A DNA stretch of 64,000 nucleotides from Pseudomonas koreensis (GTDB taxonomy: Bacteria > Pseudomonadota > Gammaproteobacteria > Pseudomonadales > Pseudomonadaceae): positions 4,031,501 to 4,095,500 of the forward strand of contig NZ_JALJWP010000001.1 in the NCBI RefSeq assembly GCF_024169245.1, written 5' to 3'. Position 1 is the stretch's first letter. Each line of letters begins with the position of its first letter. Of this stretch, positions 1-5,233 are shown in pieces. Position numbers and translations under genes: made by a program. Under the pieces are notes generated by a model. That model did no database searches. It was not told the DNA's origin and saw nothing but the letters and a program-made list of their open reading frames with translations.

Positions 1-318
1 GCGGCGAATCCGAAGTGGATCGACGGGGTCAAGCGTCACGGCTATAAAGGCGCGTTCGAACTGGCGGCGACCGTTGATAATCTGTTCGCCTTCGATGCGA
101 CGACGCAGTTGATCGATGATCATCAATACGCGTTGCTGGCGGATGCCTATTTGCTCGATCCGGCGACGCGGGATTTTGTTCGTGAGCATAATCCCCATGC
201 GCTGCGCGACATGACCGAACGCATGCTCGAGGCGCAGCAGCGCGGGATGTGGCAGGAGCCGGGGGCTTATAAAGAGGCGCTGGAGAATTTGCTGTTGGAT
301 ATCGAGGAAGATATGTAG
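1..318 (+). CDS. cobN: Cobaltochelatase subunit CobN, C-terminal end (partial)
   Basis: The reading frame is open from base 1 and stops at 316-318, so only the last 105 residues are present and the start lies outside the window. The fragment shows the usual CobN C-terminus: a KWIDGVKRHGYKGAFE stretch, an NLFAFDATTQLIDD segment, and a tail with MLEAQQRGMW and an acidic end. CobN is the large subunit of the ATP-dependent chelatase that inserts cobalt into the corrin ring in aerobic B12 synthesis, in the cytoplasm. It lies 219 bases upstream of the chelatase AAA+ gene, which fits: CobN-type large subunits need AAA+ (I/S) and VWA (D/T) partners. Confidence 0.9.
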   Translation, partial: AANPKWIDGVKRHGYKGAFELAATVDNLFAFDATTQLIDDHQYALLADAYLLDPATRDFVREHNPHALRDMTERMLEAQQRGMWQEPGAYKEALENLLLDIEEDM

Positions 319-331
319 GCGCTGAAAAGCT

Positions 332-480
332 ACCCTCACCCCAGCCCTCTCCCGGAGGGAGAGGGAGCCGATCTTTAGCGCTGTTGAAATTTGCATGGAC
401 CCGATACATCAGGTCGACAGAACTCGAGAGAACACCACGGTCGGTTCCCTCTCCCTCTGGGAGAGGGCTAGGGTGAGGGC
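332..480. repeat. Inverted pair of CCCTCACCC/CCCTCTCCC repeats (family C)
   Basis: Two copies of a roughly 40-base element face each other. The left one (332-371) reads CCCTCACCCCAGCCCTCTCCC and on; the right one (441-480) is close to its reverse complement. About 70 bases lie between. The same paired element recurs at 9253-9390, so it is a dispersed intergenic repeat and not a terminator unique to cobN. It fills most of the space between cobN and the chelatase gene; 481-537 is the short remaining leader. Confidence 0.75.
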
Positions 481-537
481 GACAATTGACACACCGCAAT
501 CTAAAAAGCACCCACGACCACGAAAGAGAAAACCCAA

Positions 538-1548
538 ATGACCGACACCCCGCATTTCCCGCTCTCCGCCGTGGTCGGCGCCGATGACCTGAAACTCGCT
601 CTGTGCCTGACCGCCATCGACCCGAAAATCGGTGGCGTGCTCATCGAAGGGCCACGCGGCATGGCCAAGTCGACACTGGCCCGGGGCGTGGCGGATCTGC
701 TCGCCAGCGGCCAATTCGTCACCTTGCCACTGGGCGCCACTGAAGAGCGGCTGGTCGGCACCCTCGACCTCGATGCCGCCCTCAGCGGCGGTCGCGCGCA
801 GTTTTCCCCCGGAGTATTGGCCAAGGCTGACGGTGGCGTGCTCTACGTCGATGAGGTCAATCTGTTGCCCGATCATTTGGTCGACCTGCTGCTCGATGTT
901 GCCGCAAGCGGCACCAATGTGATCGAGCGCGACGGCATTTCCCACCGGCACTCGGCGAAGTTCGTGCTGATCGGCACCATGAACCCGGAGGAGGGCGAGC
1001 TGCGCCCGCAACTGCTTGATCGATTCGGCTTGAATGTCGCCCTCAGCGGCCATACCGCGCCGACCGAGCGCGGGCAGATCATTCGCCGACGGCTGGATTT
1101 TGACAGCGATCCGCAGGCGTTCTGCGCGCAGTGGGAAACCGAGCAACACGCCTTGCGGTCGCGCTGTGAAACCGCCCGGAACCTGTTGGTGAAAATCCCC
1201 TTGGACGATACGGCACTGGCGCTTATTACCGAGCGTTGTTTCGCCGCTGGCGTCGATGGCTTGCGCGCCGATCTGGTGTGGTTGCGCGCGGCCCGCGCGC
1301 ATGCCGCGTGGCGTGGCGCGGATGCTATTGCCGAGCTGGACATCGATGCCGTGGCTGAATTTGCCTTGCGCCATCGCCGTCGCGAACAACCTTCGGCCAA
1401 CGCTGAGTCGCCTGCGCCACCGCCGTCAGGTGCAGAGAGCCAACCCGGGGAAGGGCAGGGCCAATGGGGCGAAATGCCGGCCACCGCGCAAGTTACCGGT
1501 GCCCGCCGCGAAGTACCAAGCTGGCCGCCACTGGCAAAAAAGCCCTAG
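538..1548 (+). CDS. chlI: Chelatase AAA+ ATPase (ChlI/BchI-like), also the N-terminal part of a frameshifted ChlD
   Basis: This 336-residue AAA+ protein has a Walker A variant GPRGMAKST near residues 39-47, a Walker B VLYVDEVNLL near 101-110, an LIGTMNPEEGELRPQLLDRF sensor/arginine-finger region near 142-161, and a Pro/Ser-rich linker from about 285. It matches the Mg/Co-chelatase I-subunit family, whose ATP hydrolysis drives metal insertion by the CobN/ChlH-type subunit. The zero frame ends at TAG 1546-1548. Four codons earlier, 1536-1542 is A AAA AAG in the phase needed for -1 slippage. About 335 codons of this frame would therefore also form the N-terminal half of the longer VWA protein. 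The start at 538 follows an AGAGAAAA stretch with no better ATG nearby. Confidence 0.85.
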   Translation: MTDTPHFPLSAVVGADDLKLALCLTAIDPKIGGVLIEGPRGMAKSTLARGVADLLASGQFVTLPLGATEERLVGTLDLDAALSGGRAQFSPGVLAKADGGVLYVDEVNLLPDHLVDLLLDVAASGTNVIERDGISHRHSAKFVLIGTMNPEEGELRPQLLDRFGLNVALSGHTAPTERGQIIRRRLDFDSDPQAFCAQWETEQHALRSRCETARNLLVKIPLDDTALALITERCFAAGVDGLRADLVWLRAARAHAAWRGADAIAELDIDAVAEFALRHRRREQPSANAESPAPPPSGAESQPGEGQGQWGEMPATAQVTGARREVPSWPPLAKKP

Positions 1549-1583
1549 GCATTCGCCCCCGATCCGATGCGGGGGCGAATGCC
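1536..1583 (+). promoter_or_regulatory. Probable programmed -1 ribosomal frameshift signal (slippery heptamer plus hairpin)
   Basis: The heptamer A AAA AAG at 1536-1542 is in zero-frame phase gcA AAA AAG, the arrangement used by E. coli dnaX. After a 5-base spacer a perfect 13-bp stem follows: GGCATTCGCCCCC at 1548-1560 pairs with GGGGGCGAATGCC at 1571-1583 around a 10-base loop. The zero-frame stop TAG (1546-1548) lies between heptamer and stem. A -1 slip continues at GCC 1542-1544 into the open VWA frame. I see no strong Shine-Dalgarno-like stimulator upstream of the heptamer. Programmed frameshifting in cobalt-chelatase chlD genes has, to my knowledge, been reported; the case here rests on the sequence. 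Confidence 0.8.
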
Positions 1584-2213
1584 AGACCCCGCGCCGGACA
1601 GCTCGATGATGGCCGTCAAGGGCAACGGCAGGCGGCGAGCGGCGGTGCGGTGAACTGGCCCGGCACGTTGCTCAACGGTCGTCCGCAACGTCGCGCTGAT
1701 CTGCTGTTTCAGCAGCGCACCCGCTCACCACATGAGGTCTGGTTGGTGATCGTCGATGCGTCGGCCTCGACCCGGCGCCATCAGGCCTTGAGCGATGCCA
1801 AGGGCTTGCTCGCGCAGATGTTCGACGACGCCTATCGCCAGCGCGCGCGGCTAGCCTTGCTGACAGCCAGTGGCATCGCGCCGGAGTGGCAGGTGCAAGG
1901 CTTGAAGGCCTCAACCGGCCTGCGCGTCTGGCTCGACGGCCTGGGCGCCGGTGGCGGCACGCCGTTGCTCGCTGCGTTGGAGCAGGCGCAACAATGGCTG
2001 ACGATGCGGCGCAAGCGCTTTCCGGCTGAGTTGCAGCGCTGCCTGGTCGTGACCGACGGTCGCTTGAAAGAACTGTCGGGATTGCCGGTGCTCGCGTGTC
2101 CTGGATTGCTCATCGACATCGAGCGCGGGCCGATTCGACTGGGCCGGGCGATGGAACTGGCGAGCGCGCTGCAAGCGCAATATCGGCATATCGATGAGTT
2201 GATTTCCCTCTGA
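1542..2213 (+). CDS. chlD: VWA-domain half of ChlD-like chelatase subunit, read by -1 frameshift
   Basis: The frame contains a complete VWA domain with MIDAS residues: DASAS (DxSxS), GGGTP and VTDGR in the right order. It is the signature of the D/CobT-type chelatase subunit. The only ATG in the frame is at 1464, and the codons 1464-1541 read as an Arg-rich shadow of the AAA+ gene. The start given here is therefore the point where a -1 slip at 1536-1542 would enter. The fused product would have about 558 residues (335 from the AAA+ frame and 223 from this one), giving AAA+, linker and VWA, which is the usual ChlD layout. If no frameshifting occurs, the fallback is a 249-residue protein from 1464. 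Confidence 0.8.
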   Translation, partial: ALGIRPRSDAGANARPRAGQLDDGRQGQRQAASGGAVNWPGTLLNGRPQRRADLLFQQRTRSPHEVWLVIVDASASTRRHQALSDAKGLLAQMFDDAYRQRARLALLTASGIAPEWQVQGLKASTGLRVWLDGLGAGGGTPLLAALEQAQQWLTMRRKRFPAELQRCLVVTDGRLKELSGLPVLACPGLLIDIERGPIRLGRAMELASALQAQYRHIDELISL

Positions 2214-2231
2214 TATTTTCTGTGTTTGGTC

Positions 2232-2315
2232 GGGCTTCATCGCGAGCAGGCTCACTCCTACATTTGGAATGCGTTCCCCTGTAGGAGGAGTGAGCCTGCT
2301 CGCGATGAGGCCCGC
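2232..2315. repeat. REPIN-type inverted pair (family A)
   Basis: An ATCGCGAGCAGGCTCACTCC copy and its inverted copy are separated by about 20 bases. This is the typical P. fluorescens REP core (GCGAGCAGGCTC). It lies just after the VWA stop codon and can fold into a long hairpin. Related pairs are at 4200, 11499, 22595 and 26601. Confidence 0.85.
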
Positions 2316-2423
2316 ACAATCAACACATCTGTCCAGACTGTACAGATTTTGAAATGATTTGCCTCTGTAGGAAATGTTCCCGAAGCCTGTACGCTCCAGG
2401 GCCATTTTCAATTCAGGATTTAC

Positions 2424-2579
2424 ATGAACACCCTCTCGGAGCCTCCCAGTCAGCATTCTCCAGCGCGCCTTCGTGCGGTCTTGATCCATTCGCAGCATCC
2501 CGTCTTCCGACTCCCGACCATGGTTGATAACGCAGCTCTCGAGCTTGCGCGTTGCACTTTGCCGTGTCCGGCAGCCTGA
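2424..2579 (+). CDS. Possible 51-residue leader ORF upstream of the terC-like gene
   Basis: An ATG at 2424 opens 51 codons (MNTLSEPPSQ... ending CTLPCPAA) and stops at 2577-2579, 28 bases before the TerC start. It is not recognised as any family and has no strong Shine-Dalgarno sequence. It could be a small protein, a regulatory leader peptide or chance. The 2316-2607 stretch contains nothing else I can name. TerC relatives in other bacteria often sit behind an Mn riboswitch (yybP-ykoY), but I could not identify its conserved core here. Confidence 0.25.
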   Translation: MNTLSEPPSQHSPARLRAVLIHSQHPVFRLPTMVDNAALELARCTLPCPAA

Positions 2580-2607
2580 ATTCACCGAATAGAGATCGAG
2601 ACGTTTT

Positions 2608-4167
2608 ATGGAATGGTTAGCGGATCCCACGGCCTGGTTAGGCCTGTTGACTCTGATCGTGCTGGAACTGGTGCTGGGTATCGACAACCTGGTGTTCATC
2701 GCAATCCTGGCCGACAAACTGCCGCCGCATCAGCGTGATCGCGCGCGCATCATCGGTCTGTCGCTGGCGCTGATCATGCGTCTGGGCCTGTTGGCGAGTA
2801 TTTCCTGGCTGGTCACGCTGACGCAGCCGTTGTTCGAGGTGTTCGACAAGAGCTTCTCCGGGCGTGACCTGATCATGCTGTTCGGTGGTGTGTTCCTGCT
2901 GTTCAAGGCCACCATGGAGTTGCATGAACGCCTCGAAGGCCACGTCGGCGAGCGTTCGACCAACAACGCCTATGCGCTGTTCTGGCCAATCGTGGCGCAG
3001 ATCGTGGTGCTCGACGCGGTGTTCTCGCTCGATGCGGTGATTACCGCCGTGGGCATGGTCGATGAACTGGCGGTGATGATGATCGCCGTGATCATTTCCA
3101 TCGGCCTGATGATCGTCGCCAGCAAGCCGTTGACCCGTTTCGTCAACGCGCACCCGACCGTGATCATGCTGTGTCTGGGCTTCCTGATGATGATCGGTTT
3201 TGCCCTGACTGCAGAAGGTCTGGGTTTCCACATCCCGAAAGGTTATCTGTACGCCGCGATCGGGTTCTCGATCCTCATCGAAGTGTTCAACCAGATCGCC
3301 CGGGCACGCCGCAAACGCTCGATGCAGGGCTTGCGTCCGCTGCGTGAGCGCACCGCCCATGCGGTAATGCGCTTGCTCGGCGGGCGCAAACTCGCAGTGG
3401 AGGAGGTCGGTGAGGAGATTTCCGATTTGCTCGACAACGGTGAAGCGCCGATCGCCGAACTGTTCGACCGCCGTGAGCGGGTGATGATCAGCGGCGTGCT
3501 GCAACTGGCCGAGCGGCCGATTCGCCACCTCATGACGGTGCGCGCCGATGTCGATCTGATCGACCTGGCCGATGATGCCGAAACCATTCGCACGAAGTTG
3601 ATGCATTCGTCCTACTCGCGCTTGCCGTTGATTCGTGATGGCGCAGTGGACGAGCCGCTGGGCTTTGTACACAAGAAGGAATTGCTCAAGGGGTATCTGG
3701 CCGGCAACGAGCCGAACCTTGAGCATCTGGTCCGCAAGACCCTCAATCTGCTCGACAGTTATTCGATCCTCAATGCGCTGGAGCAAATGCGCGCGGCCTC
3801 GACGCACATTGCTTTCGTGGTCAACGAGTTTGGTGACTTCGTTGGTGTGCTGACCATGACCGACATCCTCGAGTCGATCGCCGGCGAGTTACCCGATGCC
3901 AGCGAAATCGAAGGCCCGGACGTGATCGAAGAGCGTGGTGGGTTTCTGGTCAGCGGCGCGTTGCCCTTGGCACGAGTGCGCCAGCGCACCGGCTTCGGCG
4001 CTGAGCCCACCGAGGACTATCAGACCATGGCGGGGTTGGTCATGAGTCTTCTGGATCGCTTGCCGATGACCGGCGATCAACTGGAATACGAAGGCTGGCA
4101 ACTGACCGTCAAAGCGGTTGAAGAGCGGCGGGTGACGCGGGTGCTGCTGGAGCGTGCTGCCGCGTAA
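2608..4167 (+). CDS. TerC-family integral membrane protein with CBS pair and CorC/HlyC domain
   Basis: This 519-residue protein carries an N-terminal TerC domain (about 1-230, seven or so hydrophobic helices). The acidic membrane motifs [11 protein letters not shown] near 23-33 and [12 protein letters not shown] near 138-150 are typical of TerC. A cytoplasmic part follows with two CBS modules (about 300-430) and a CorC/HlyC transporter-associated domain (about 435-515). The architecture is that of YoaE/YegH-type inner-membrane proteins. TerC proteins are linked to Mn export and metal loading of exported enzymes; the substrate here is not shown by the sequence. It is a single gene flanked by REP pairs. 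Confidence 0.85.
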
Positions 4168-4199
4168 TACTTGAGCTCTCTACAGGCGGTGCCGGCCTC

Positions 4200-4264
4200 T
4201 TCGCGAGCAAGCTCGCTCCCACATTGGAACGCGTTTCAAATGTGGGAGCGAGCTTGCTCGCGAA
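4200..4264. repeat. REPIN-type inverted pair (family A)
   Basis: TTCGCGAGCAAGCTCGCTCC and its inverted copy flank an 18-base centre. It lies between the convergent TerC and thioredoxin-like genes and could also form a hairpin in their transcripts. Confidence 0.85.
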
Positions 4265-4304
4265 TGCGATCTGGCAGGCACTTCACATCCCTGGTGAAGC
4301 TCGT

Positions 4305-4736
4305 TCAGAACATCCTCCCTGGGCGTGCACGTGGGACGGTGCGCAAAGTACGGAGCGTCTGACGCAACCAAGCCAGATCATGCGTTCGTTTGCGCGCGGC
4401 AACGGGCGCCTTGGTCTTGCCGATATGCGCGGCGAAATCCCGTGCCAGAGTTTCTTCAGTCCCAATACCTTTGAGTTTTTTTATCAGCCTGCCGCCCTTG
4501 TAGAAGAGCACCGTCGGCGTGGCGGTCACGTTTGGGTGTCTGGGCGACTGGCTGGTGTCGAGCACGTAGATGTTGGCACGCAATCTATATGGCTCGGCAA
4601 TCCGCCGAAAAATCGGCCCCGCCCATTCGCACGCGGGGCAGTGATCATTTGCGAAATACAGGATGACCGGGCGCCAGGTTTTCAGGGCCTTGCGGTAAAC
4701 CGGTGCCAGCGAAAAAGTTGTGTTTGATGCGTTCAT
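4305..4736 (-). CDS. Thioredoxin-like protein with CPAC active site
   Basis: This 143-residue protein has a thioredoxin fold: a VILYFANDHCPACEWAGPIF active-site region (CPAC, near residues 32-35) and a TPTVLFYKGG strand carrying the cis-Pro. The basic C-terminal tail (about 105-143) goes beyond the fold. There is no signal peptide, so it is probably cytoplasmic. The CPAC dipeptide differs from CGPC of TrxA, so its redox potential and partners are uncertain. The start at 4736 is preferred because an AAGGA motif precedes it; an in-frame ATG six codons upstream is possible. Confidence 0.7.
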   Translation of the reverse strand: MNASNTTFSLAPVYRKALKTWRPVILYFANDHCPACEWAGPIFRRIAEPYRLRANIYVLDTSQSPRHPNVTATPTVLFYKGGRLIKKLKGIGTEETLARDFAAHIGKTKAPVAARKRTHDLAWLRQTLRTLRTVPRARPGRMF

Positions 4737-4939
4737 CGAATGGTCCTTTTTCAACGAGCGGAAGGTTTGCTGACGTTAAAGGAGCATGCGGGTCGGGGTC
4801 TACTGTCAGAAATTACAGGTGAGCTGCTTAACCACGGGATTAATCCCACAAAAACGCCAGAGAGCGCCGACAACCAATACAGGAACCTCACAAGAAAGCG
4901 CGTGATAGCCTCCATACATCAAGCCGAGCGTCACTTGGA

Positions 4940-4955
4940 GTGCTATTTTGAGCAC
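4940..4955 (+). promoter_or_regulatory. Inverted repeat GTGCT-N6-AGCAC, possible toxin-antitoxin operator
   Basis: GTGCT at 4940-4944 and AGCAC at 4951-4955 form a dyad 30 bases upstream of the antitoxin ATG. Further AGCAC copies lie between it and the AAGGAG ribosome site at 4971-4976. Type II antitoxins usually repress their own promoter at such dyads; this is an inference from position. Confidence 0.35.
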
Positions 4956-4984
4956 CAACCAGAGCACTTCAAGGAGCACAGTTC

Positions 4985-5233
4985 ATGACGCACATCGTTC
5001 TTTCTCATGTCGTAGCGAGTATTTCCGAATTGAAAAAAAATCCTATGGGTACCGTGGCTGCTGGTGGAGGCCGGTCAGTGGCGATCCTTAATCGAAACGA
5101 ACCGGCTTTTTATTGCGTGCCCGCCAAAGAATACGAGGCAATGATGGAGCGCCTTGAGGATCTGGAGCTGATCGCCCTCTGTAAGGAGCGAGAAAACGAT
5201 CCGACCATCAAGGTATCCATTGATGACCTATGA
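4985..5233 (+). CDS. Type II antitoxin, Phd/YefM-RelB family
   Basis: This 82-residue protein has the Phd/YefM N-terminal pattern: VVASISELKKNP, then a GGGRSVAILNRNEPAFYCVPAKEYEAMMERLEDLEL core and an acidic C-terminal tail (ENDPTIKVSIDDL) that would wrap the toxin. It neutralises the RelE-type toxin encoded next and probably autorepresses the operon. Its last codons overlap the toxin start at 5223, which is typical of coupled pairs. A good ribosome site (AAGGAG) lies 8 bases upstream of the ATG. Confidence 0.85.
   Translation: MTHIVLSHVVASISELKKNPMGTVAAGGGRSVAILNRNEPAFYCVPAKEYEAMMERLEDLELIALCKERENDPTIKVSIDDL

What the first reader, a model, noticed from the sequence alone, without database searches (positions are those of the whole stretch)
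1536..1583. Programmed -1 frameshift signal making ChlI-like and ChlD-like chelatase subunits from one gene
Seen: A AAA AAG in the right phase (1536-1542), a 5-base spacer, then a perfect 13-bp stem with a 10-base loop (1548-1583). The zero-frame stop sits inside the signal and the -1 frame opens into a complete VWA domain with an intact MIDAS. Known: the same heptamer with a downstream hairpin directs -1 shifting in dnaX, and frameshifting in cobalt-chelatase chlD genes has been reported. Inferred: about 336- and 558-residue products serve with CobN in aerobic B12 synthesis. The usual annotation as two overlapping genes would miss this.
Basis: partly seen in the sequence, partly recalled or inferred. 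Interest (0 to 1): 0.8.

Follow-up and report, generated by a model that had tools for sequence, protein, structure and literature searches.

The report
Frameshift signal in Pseudomonas cobalt-chelatase gene
A single Pseudomonas gene carries a slippery sequence and an RNA hairpin that should let ribosomes make both a short and a long subunit of the enzyme that puts cobalt into vitamin B12; this is real and well conserved, but already described in the literature.

Summary
Predicted products: 336 and 558 residues.

It is not a local mutation or sequencing error. In named relatives, 67 of 67 split genes (window included) have an in-phase A-rich slip site whose zero-frame stop begins 7 or 10 nt after its first base. 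Of 298 Pseudomonas genomes, 280 have the gene: 252 match the motif, 22 of the other 28 have the slip site with other flanks, 2 are cut by contig ends, 4 are exceptions. One stem pair covaries clearly. cobN lies directly upstream; no CobS, CobT or second strong ChlI was found in the genome.

The system is published: Antonov 2013, Atkins 2016 (prints an almost identical P. protegens stem-loop), Kuznetsov 2022. A caution: several fused-frame relatives have CobN but no detected separate small subunit, so a strict need for two products is not proven. Verdict: real, probably functional, already known.

The parts
1..318 (+). C-terminal part of cobN (large cobaltochelatase subunit); gene starts upstream of the window
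   Evidence: Own-genome TIGR02257 match 1733 bits at G000:C1:4027970-4031806, ending at window base 306; sequence and stop at 316-318
538..1548 (+). Zero-frame ORF, 336 aa, ChlI-like AAA+ subunit
   Evidence: ORF list; AAA_lid_2, AAA_5, Mg_chelatase; TIGR02442 407.7 bits, TIGR02030 342.5 bits, both below their cut-offs
1536..1542 (+). Slippery heptamer A_AAA_AAG
   Evidence: Sequence; in-phase in 67 of 67 split named loci, window included: 64 AAAAAAG, 3 AAAAAAA
1543..1547 (+). Spacer, 5 nt
   Evidence: Sequence
1546..1548 (+). Zero-frame stop TAG inside the signal
   Evidence: Sequence; stop at +10 from heptamer start in 66 of 67 split loci, +7 in one
1548..1560 (+). 5' arm of the stimulatory stem (13 bp)
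   Evidence: Fold; covariation at 1553/1578
1561..1570 (+). Loop, 10 nt, variable in sequence
   Evidence: alignment
1571..1583 (+). 3' arm of the stimulatory stem
   Evidence: Fold; alignment
1542..2213 (+). -1-frame extension (223 aa plus stop) giving the 558-aa ChlD-like fusion
   Evidence: TIGR02442 C-terminal match E=1.5e-18; BchD structure 2x31_A E=1.2e-8
1743..2060 (+). VWA domain, MIDAS DASAS starting at 1755
   Evidence: VWA_2 E=1.3e-7; motifs

Best explanation
The gene downstream of cobN is a frameshifted chlD (fs-chlD). Ribosomes that stay in frame end at TAG 1546-1548 and make a 336-aa ChlI-like AAA+ small subunit. Ribosomes held at the stem-loop slip back one base on A_AAA_AAG and continue to 2213, making a 558-aa ChlD-like medium subunit (AAA+ module, linker, VWA domain). 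Both products share the same AAA+ module and are inferred to assemble with CobN as the aerobic cobaltochelatase. Shown here: anatomy, conservation, one clearly covarying pair, gene neighbourhood, lack of a detected CobS, CobT or second strong ChlI. Shown by others: frameshifting in this gene family in E. coli reporters. Inferred: efficiency at this site, existence of the fusion protein here, and the subunit roles.
For: Exact signal in phase. 67 of 67 split named loci keep an in-phase A6R slip site, and in 66 of them the VWA half scores best in the -1 frame; in L069 the contig ends first. 252 of 298 Pseudomonas genomes match slip site plus stop context (reversed-pattern control in 4 of 298), and 0 of the 18 genomes without the gene match. 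21 of the 27 fetched non-matching genomes still have the slip site with other flanks. Two genomes whose TAG is lost stop instead at a TGA inside the loop, with slip site and stem kept (L101, L103). In 47 distinct sequences 93.9% of stem cells pair against 37-51% in slid controls, and pair 1553/1578 is CG 21, UA 17, UG 9. The CobN C-terminus lies within 3 kb upstream in 69 of 80 loci. Literature.
Against: No protein evidence for this genome. Synonymous recodings fold as well in 246 of 5000 cases. The 47 sequences were pre-filtered for a 3' arm at a fixed place, which inflates percent paired. On other measures the covariation is modest: further pair types are reached by 167 of 500 shuffles, and the covariation score 0.132 is only a little above two slid controls, 0.121 and 0.116. 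Six of 10 clearly fused-frame relatives have no strong ChlI or CobS elsewhere, and 5 of those 6 have CobN, so a single fused product may suffice there. All 3 Caballeronia split genomes also hold a CobS-like gene. Four Pseudomonas genomes lack an intact signal.
Confidence: 0.92

Rival explanations
1. Two separate genes: the VWA protein starts independently in the -1 frame (for example ATG 1464, or a start after the stop), as an annotation of two overlapping genes would imply.
For: ATG 1464 opens a 249-aa ORF; 65 of 66 split loci have some ATG, GTG or TTG in the -1 frame before the VWA domain.
Against: No start position is shared by all; the commonest is at 31 of 66 loci, and only 7 of 66 have any start with a Shine-Dalgarno-like 4-mer at suitable distance. 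In 35 of 67 loci there is no such start codon in the -1 open stretch upstream of the heptamer. It does not explain the conserved heptamer or the stem.
Confidence: 0.04
2. Transcriptional slippage on the A run rather than ribosomal frameshifting joins the frames.
For: Some relatives have 7 A before the G (L089-L092, L104); slippage at longer A runs is known in dnaX of other bacteria (passage in PMC3711429).
Against: The run here is only 6 A, followed by G in 47 of 47 aligned sequences, and a downstream stem at a typical distance for ribosomal frameshifting is conserved.
Confidence: 0.03
3. The frame break is a recent mutation or sequencing error in a gene that is normally continuous.
For: Continuous genes exist in 10 more distant relatives. 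G216 and G034, with 5 A, show that homopolymer changes occur in deposits or lineages.
Against: The split with the same slip site is found throughout the genus sample.
Confidence: 0.01

Closest known systems
fs-chlD programmed frameshift (Antonov 2013 PMC3711429; Atkins 2016 PMC5009743; Kuznetsov 2022 PMC9227772)
   Same: Same gene, same genus, same A_AAA_AAR slip site; the P. protegens stem-loop printed in PMC5009743 has the same architecture and nearly the same sequence; same proposed products and CobN partner.
   Different: Only sequence differences; in this strain three extra codons precede the heptamer compared with L007, and its closest relatives G098 and G033 are alike (by eye). The magnesium chelatase reporter cassettes reported in PMC3711429 had 7, 9 and 11 A, not A_AAA_AAG plus this hairpin.
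E. coli dnaX -1 frameshift
   Same: A_AAA_AAG, downstream stem-loop (passages in PMC5009743 and PMC3711429); short spacer and two products sharing an AAA+ module are recalled.
   Different: In dnaX the zero frame gives the long product and the shift the short one (recalled); here the reverse. dnaX also has an upstream SD-like stimulator; no AGGA, GGAG or GAGG is seen in 1500-1535 (by eye).
Continuous one-frame ChlI-VWA protein of other gammaproteobacteria (TIGR02442-like)
   Same: Same two halves in one protein.
   Different: One frame; no A_AAA_AAG seen in phase in the 10 readable fused genes. TIGR02442 itself was scanned only against the window's protein.

Membership tests
fs-chlD (-1 programmed frameshift in chlD) | Overlapping ChlI-like and VWA frames, -1 related | tested here: met
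fs-chlD (-1 programmed frameshift in chlD) | A_AAA_AAR slip site in phase, conserved across the genus | tested here: met
   4 exceptions and 2 cut contigs among 280
fs-chlD (-1 programmed frameshift in chlD) | Downstream stimulatory RNA structure | tested here: met
   structure present; stimulation itself not tested
fs-chlD (-1 programmed frameshift in chlD) | No separate small-subunit gene in the genome | tested here: met
   One strong ChlI match, no CobS match in G000
fs-chlD (-1 programmed frameshift in chlD) | Measured frameshift product | not testable with these tools
   needs mass spectrometry or reporters
Aerobic cobaltochelatase with CobN | cobN in the genome, beside this gene | tested here: met
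   69 of 80 loci within 3 kb
CobNST of the P. denitrificans type | CobS and CobT genes | tested here: not met
   no match to TIGR01650 or TIGR01651 in the own genome
Putative cobaltochelatase TIGR02442 | Whole-protein score above the curated 779.45 bits | tested here: not met
   Predicted 558-aa fusion 469.2 bits, its best family but below the cut-off

The most novel reading that the evidence does not exclude
The frameshift ratio is a regulatory point rather than a fixed stoichiometry device: the purine/pyrimidine-rich stem responds to a ligand or metal and sets how much VWA subunit is made. Relatives with a fused gene, CobN and no detected separate small subunit suggest that the VWA form alone can serve CobN, so the short product may be a regulator or exchange subunit. 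(Triplex and divalent-cation binding were suggested in PMC5009743; not tested here.)
Probability: 0.06. Interest if true: 0.6.

Novelty: already known. Interest (0 to 1): 0.2.

Why it matters
It shows how one gene can supply two subunits of a metal chelatase and why annotation as two overlapping genes hides the larger one. The phenomenon is published. What this adds is a genus-wide count, one clear compensatory pair that in the -1 frame costs an Asn/Asp change, and a caution from fused relatives about why two products are made.

Tried and rejected
Intrinsic terminator: the stem is not followed by a T run (by eye). Rfam: none of the 6 weak matches in 1-5000 covers the signal; all are below gathering scores; five lie at 335-480 or 4187-4283 (repeat-like DNA) and one in coding DNA at 2728-2781. 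Cryptic A_AAA_AAG in fused relatives, which would give a mirror-image short product: none seen in phase in the 10 readable fused genes (the listing was partly cut by one record with unreadable bases, L081, which is left out of the fused count because its continuity cannot be told). Independent start of the VWA frame: not excluded by lack of start codons alone (only L056 of 66 has none), judged unlikely from lack of a shared start with an SD. Codon-preserving recodings gave only modest support. Papers naming PA2942 or PA2941 (locus tags recalled): one hit, holding only PA2941, not opened.

Not done: no structure prediction, no search of the large protein database, no tree. How public databases annotate this gene was not looked up; the statement about annotation as two genes rests on the passage in PMC3711429.

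Full report
WHAT IS THERE. The window opens in the last 315 coding bases of cobN (stop 316-318). The own-genome CobN match is 1733 bits. ORF 538-1548 encodes a 336-aa AAA+ protein with ChlI-type domains; its best solved relatives are ChlI 6l8d and 8osf and the magnesium-chelatase 38 kDa subunit 1g8p. The -1 frame to 2213 encodes a VWA domain with MIDAS residues DASAS, GGT and TDG; its only solved relative found at E up to 0.001 is 2x31_A, magnesium-chelatase 60 kDa subunit. The predicted 558-aa fusion has TIGR02442 (putative cobaltochelatase) as its best NCBIfam match, 469.2 bits, below the 779.45 cut-off. The stretch 1530-1600 folds at -37.9 kcal/mol, z -4.7, 0 of 200 shuffles as good.

IS IT CONSERVED, NAMED RELATIVES. 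With the window that makes 81: 3 run off their contig (L051, L065, L066), 11 have a long single frame, and 67 are split. All 67 have an in-phase A-rich slip site, 64 AAAAAAG and 3 AAAAAAA (the three Caballeronia); the zero-frame stop starts at +10 from the heptamer's first base in 66 and at +7 in one. In 66 the VWA half scores best in the -1 frame; in L069 the contig ends before it. Of the 11 long frames, one (L081) contains unreadable bases, so 10 are clearly fused.

IS IT CONSERVED, GENUS SAMPLE. A second, unnamed sample of 298 Pseudomonas genomes (window's genome included) gave 280 with the ChlI half. Among the listed matches (the list was cut) one has an open frame above 464 aa: G176, where cobN and chlI are joined; the VWA half is still in the -1 frame behind the slip site. 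The motif TGGNCAAAAAAGNNNTRRGC occurs in 252 of 298 genomes, its reversed control in 4, and it occurs in none of the 18 genomes without the gene; the window itself does not match because of extra codons before the heptamer. I compared positions for 10 of the 252 (G017, G047, G090, G105, G125, G140, G197, G228, G268, G281): in all 10 the motif sits at the 3' end of the ChlI match. For the others co-location is assumed. Two genomes also have a second match elsewhere with TGG in place of a stop (G090, G256).

THE REST OF THE SAMPLE. The 28 genomes with the gene but no motif are the window and 27 that I fetched. In 21 of those 27 the in-phase slip site is present with other flanks: stop at +10 in 17, +7 in 2, +28 in 2. 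Two are cut by contig ends (L107, L113). Four are exceptions. G216 and G034 have 5 A with the hairpin kept; in G216 the VWA lies in the +1 frame, and G034 has further frame breaks inside the ChlI half. G052 reads CCAAAAAG and its VWA frame is itself broken. G080 reads AGAAAAG and has a break in the ChlI half. So 274 of 278 readable genes keep the slip site, 252 of these resting on the pattern count.

THE HAIRPIN. I aligned 47 distinct signals (window plus 46 from L006-L068), chosen because the 3' arm lies at the same distance; 6 distinct others were left out and duplicates dropped. The choice biases percent paired upwards. Cells paired: 93.9%, against 37-51% when partners are slid. Pair 1553/1578 occurs as CG 21, UA 17 and UG 9, with no unpaired case; in the -1 frame the change at 1578 swaps Asn and Asp codons. 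Three pairs have double changes (shuffle mean 0.8; 11 of 500 reach it). Weaker measures: further pair types 8, reached by 167 of 500 shuffles; covariation score 0.132 against 0.121 and 0.116 in two slid versions, and two slid versions also have 3 pairs with double changes. Related sequences can inflate such scores. The 6 left out fold into hairpins of their own. Against the structure: 246 of 5000 recodings that keep the -1-frame amino acids fold as well.

HOW IT LIKELY WORKS. Tandem slippage of tRNA-Lys from AAA AAG to AAA AAA, stimulated by the stem (described for this heptamer in E. coli dnaX; passages in PMC5009743), gives the fusion; non-slipping ribosomes stop at TAG. The own genome has one strong ChlI match; in the ChlD scan this locus is by far the best, the next matches being E=1e-11 or weaker; and there is no match to CobS or CobT. 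So this gene is the only candidate found for both remaining subunits. Because both products carry the same AAA+ module, any mixed ring would differ only in how many members carry the VWA part (inference).

RESULTS AGAINST A SIMPLE STORY. In the 10 clearly fused genomes there is only one ChlI homologue each at E up to 1e-12. Four have a strong CobS-like gene (E below 1e-100, one with an internal TGA, all below the family's cut-off) and 6 do not (two of these have weak matches, 1e-8 and 1e-4). Five of these 6 have CobN above cut-off, in one case in two pieces; the sixth, 2.7 Mb, has none. All three Caballeronia have split genes and also a strong CobS-like gene. The CobN C-terminus is within 3 kb upstream in 69 of 80 loci; it is not in L069 nor in 10 of the 11 long-frame loci. 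So presence of the frameshift and absence of a separate small subunit do not track perfectly, and the need for two products is an inference.

LITERATURE. PMC3711429 (passages read): a magnesium chelatase cluster of 23 fs-genes including Pseudomonas; three cassettes gave 63, 40 and 10% in E. coli, with 11, 9 and 7 A; [quoted passage not shown] PMC5009743 (passages read): A_AAA_AAR in Pseudomonas and others under strong purifying selection; quotes the P. protegens stem-loop, same architecture as here; suggests triplex and cation binding. PMC9227772 (abstract, introduction, results and passages read): fs-chlD gives both small and medium subunits; P. aeruginosa listed in stage 8. A 2020 paper in Mol Biol Evol on the same subject was not held and is recalled only. 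The mechanism, the gene, the genus and the proposed function are thus in print; this is a further instance.

Noticed in passing
L086 746-5491 (unnamed Pseudomonas genome G176): cobN and the ChlI half form one 1581-aa open frame (CobN C-terminus running into ChlI), with the slip site and hairpin kept downstream; a natural link between the subunits, or a sequence error.
   Followed up: partly
window 333-371 and 441-479: 39-nt inverted repeat, 92% complementary, between cobN and chlI; looks like a mobile repeat element.
   Followed up: no
window about 2231-2314: Inverted GAGCAGGCTCACTCC-type repeat just downstream of the gene (by eye), resembling Pseudomonas REP elements (name recalled).
   Followed up: no
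L101 and L103 near the heptamer: TAG stop lost; the zero frame instead ends at TGA inside the hairpin loop, while slip site and stem arms are kept, one stem position mismatched in L103.
   Followed up: yes
L079, L080, L084 (Caballeronia): Split genes with AAAAAAA slip sites, and a CobS-like gene elsewhere in the same genomes.
   Followed up: partly
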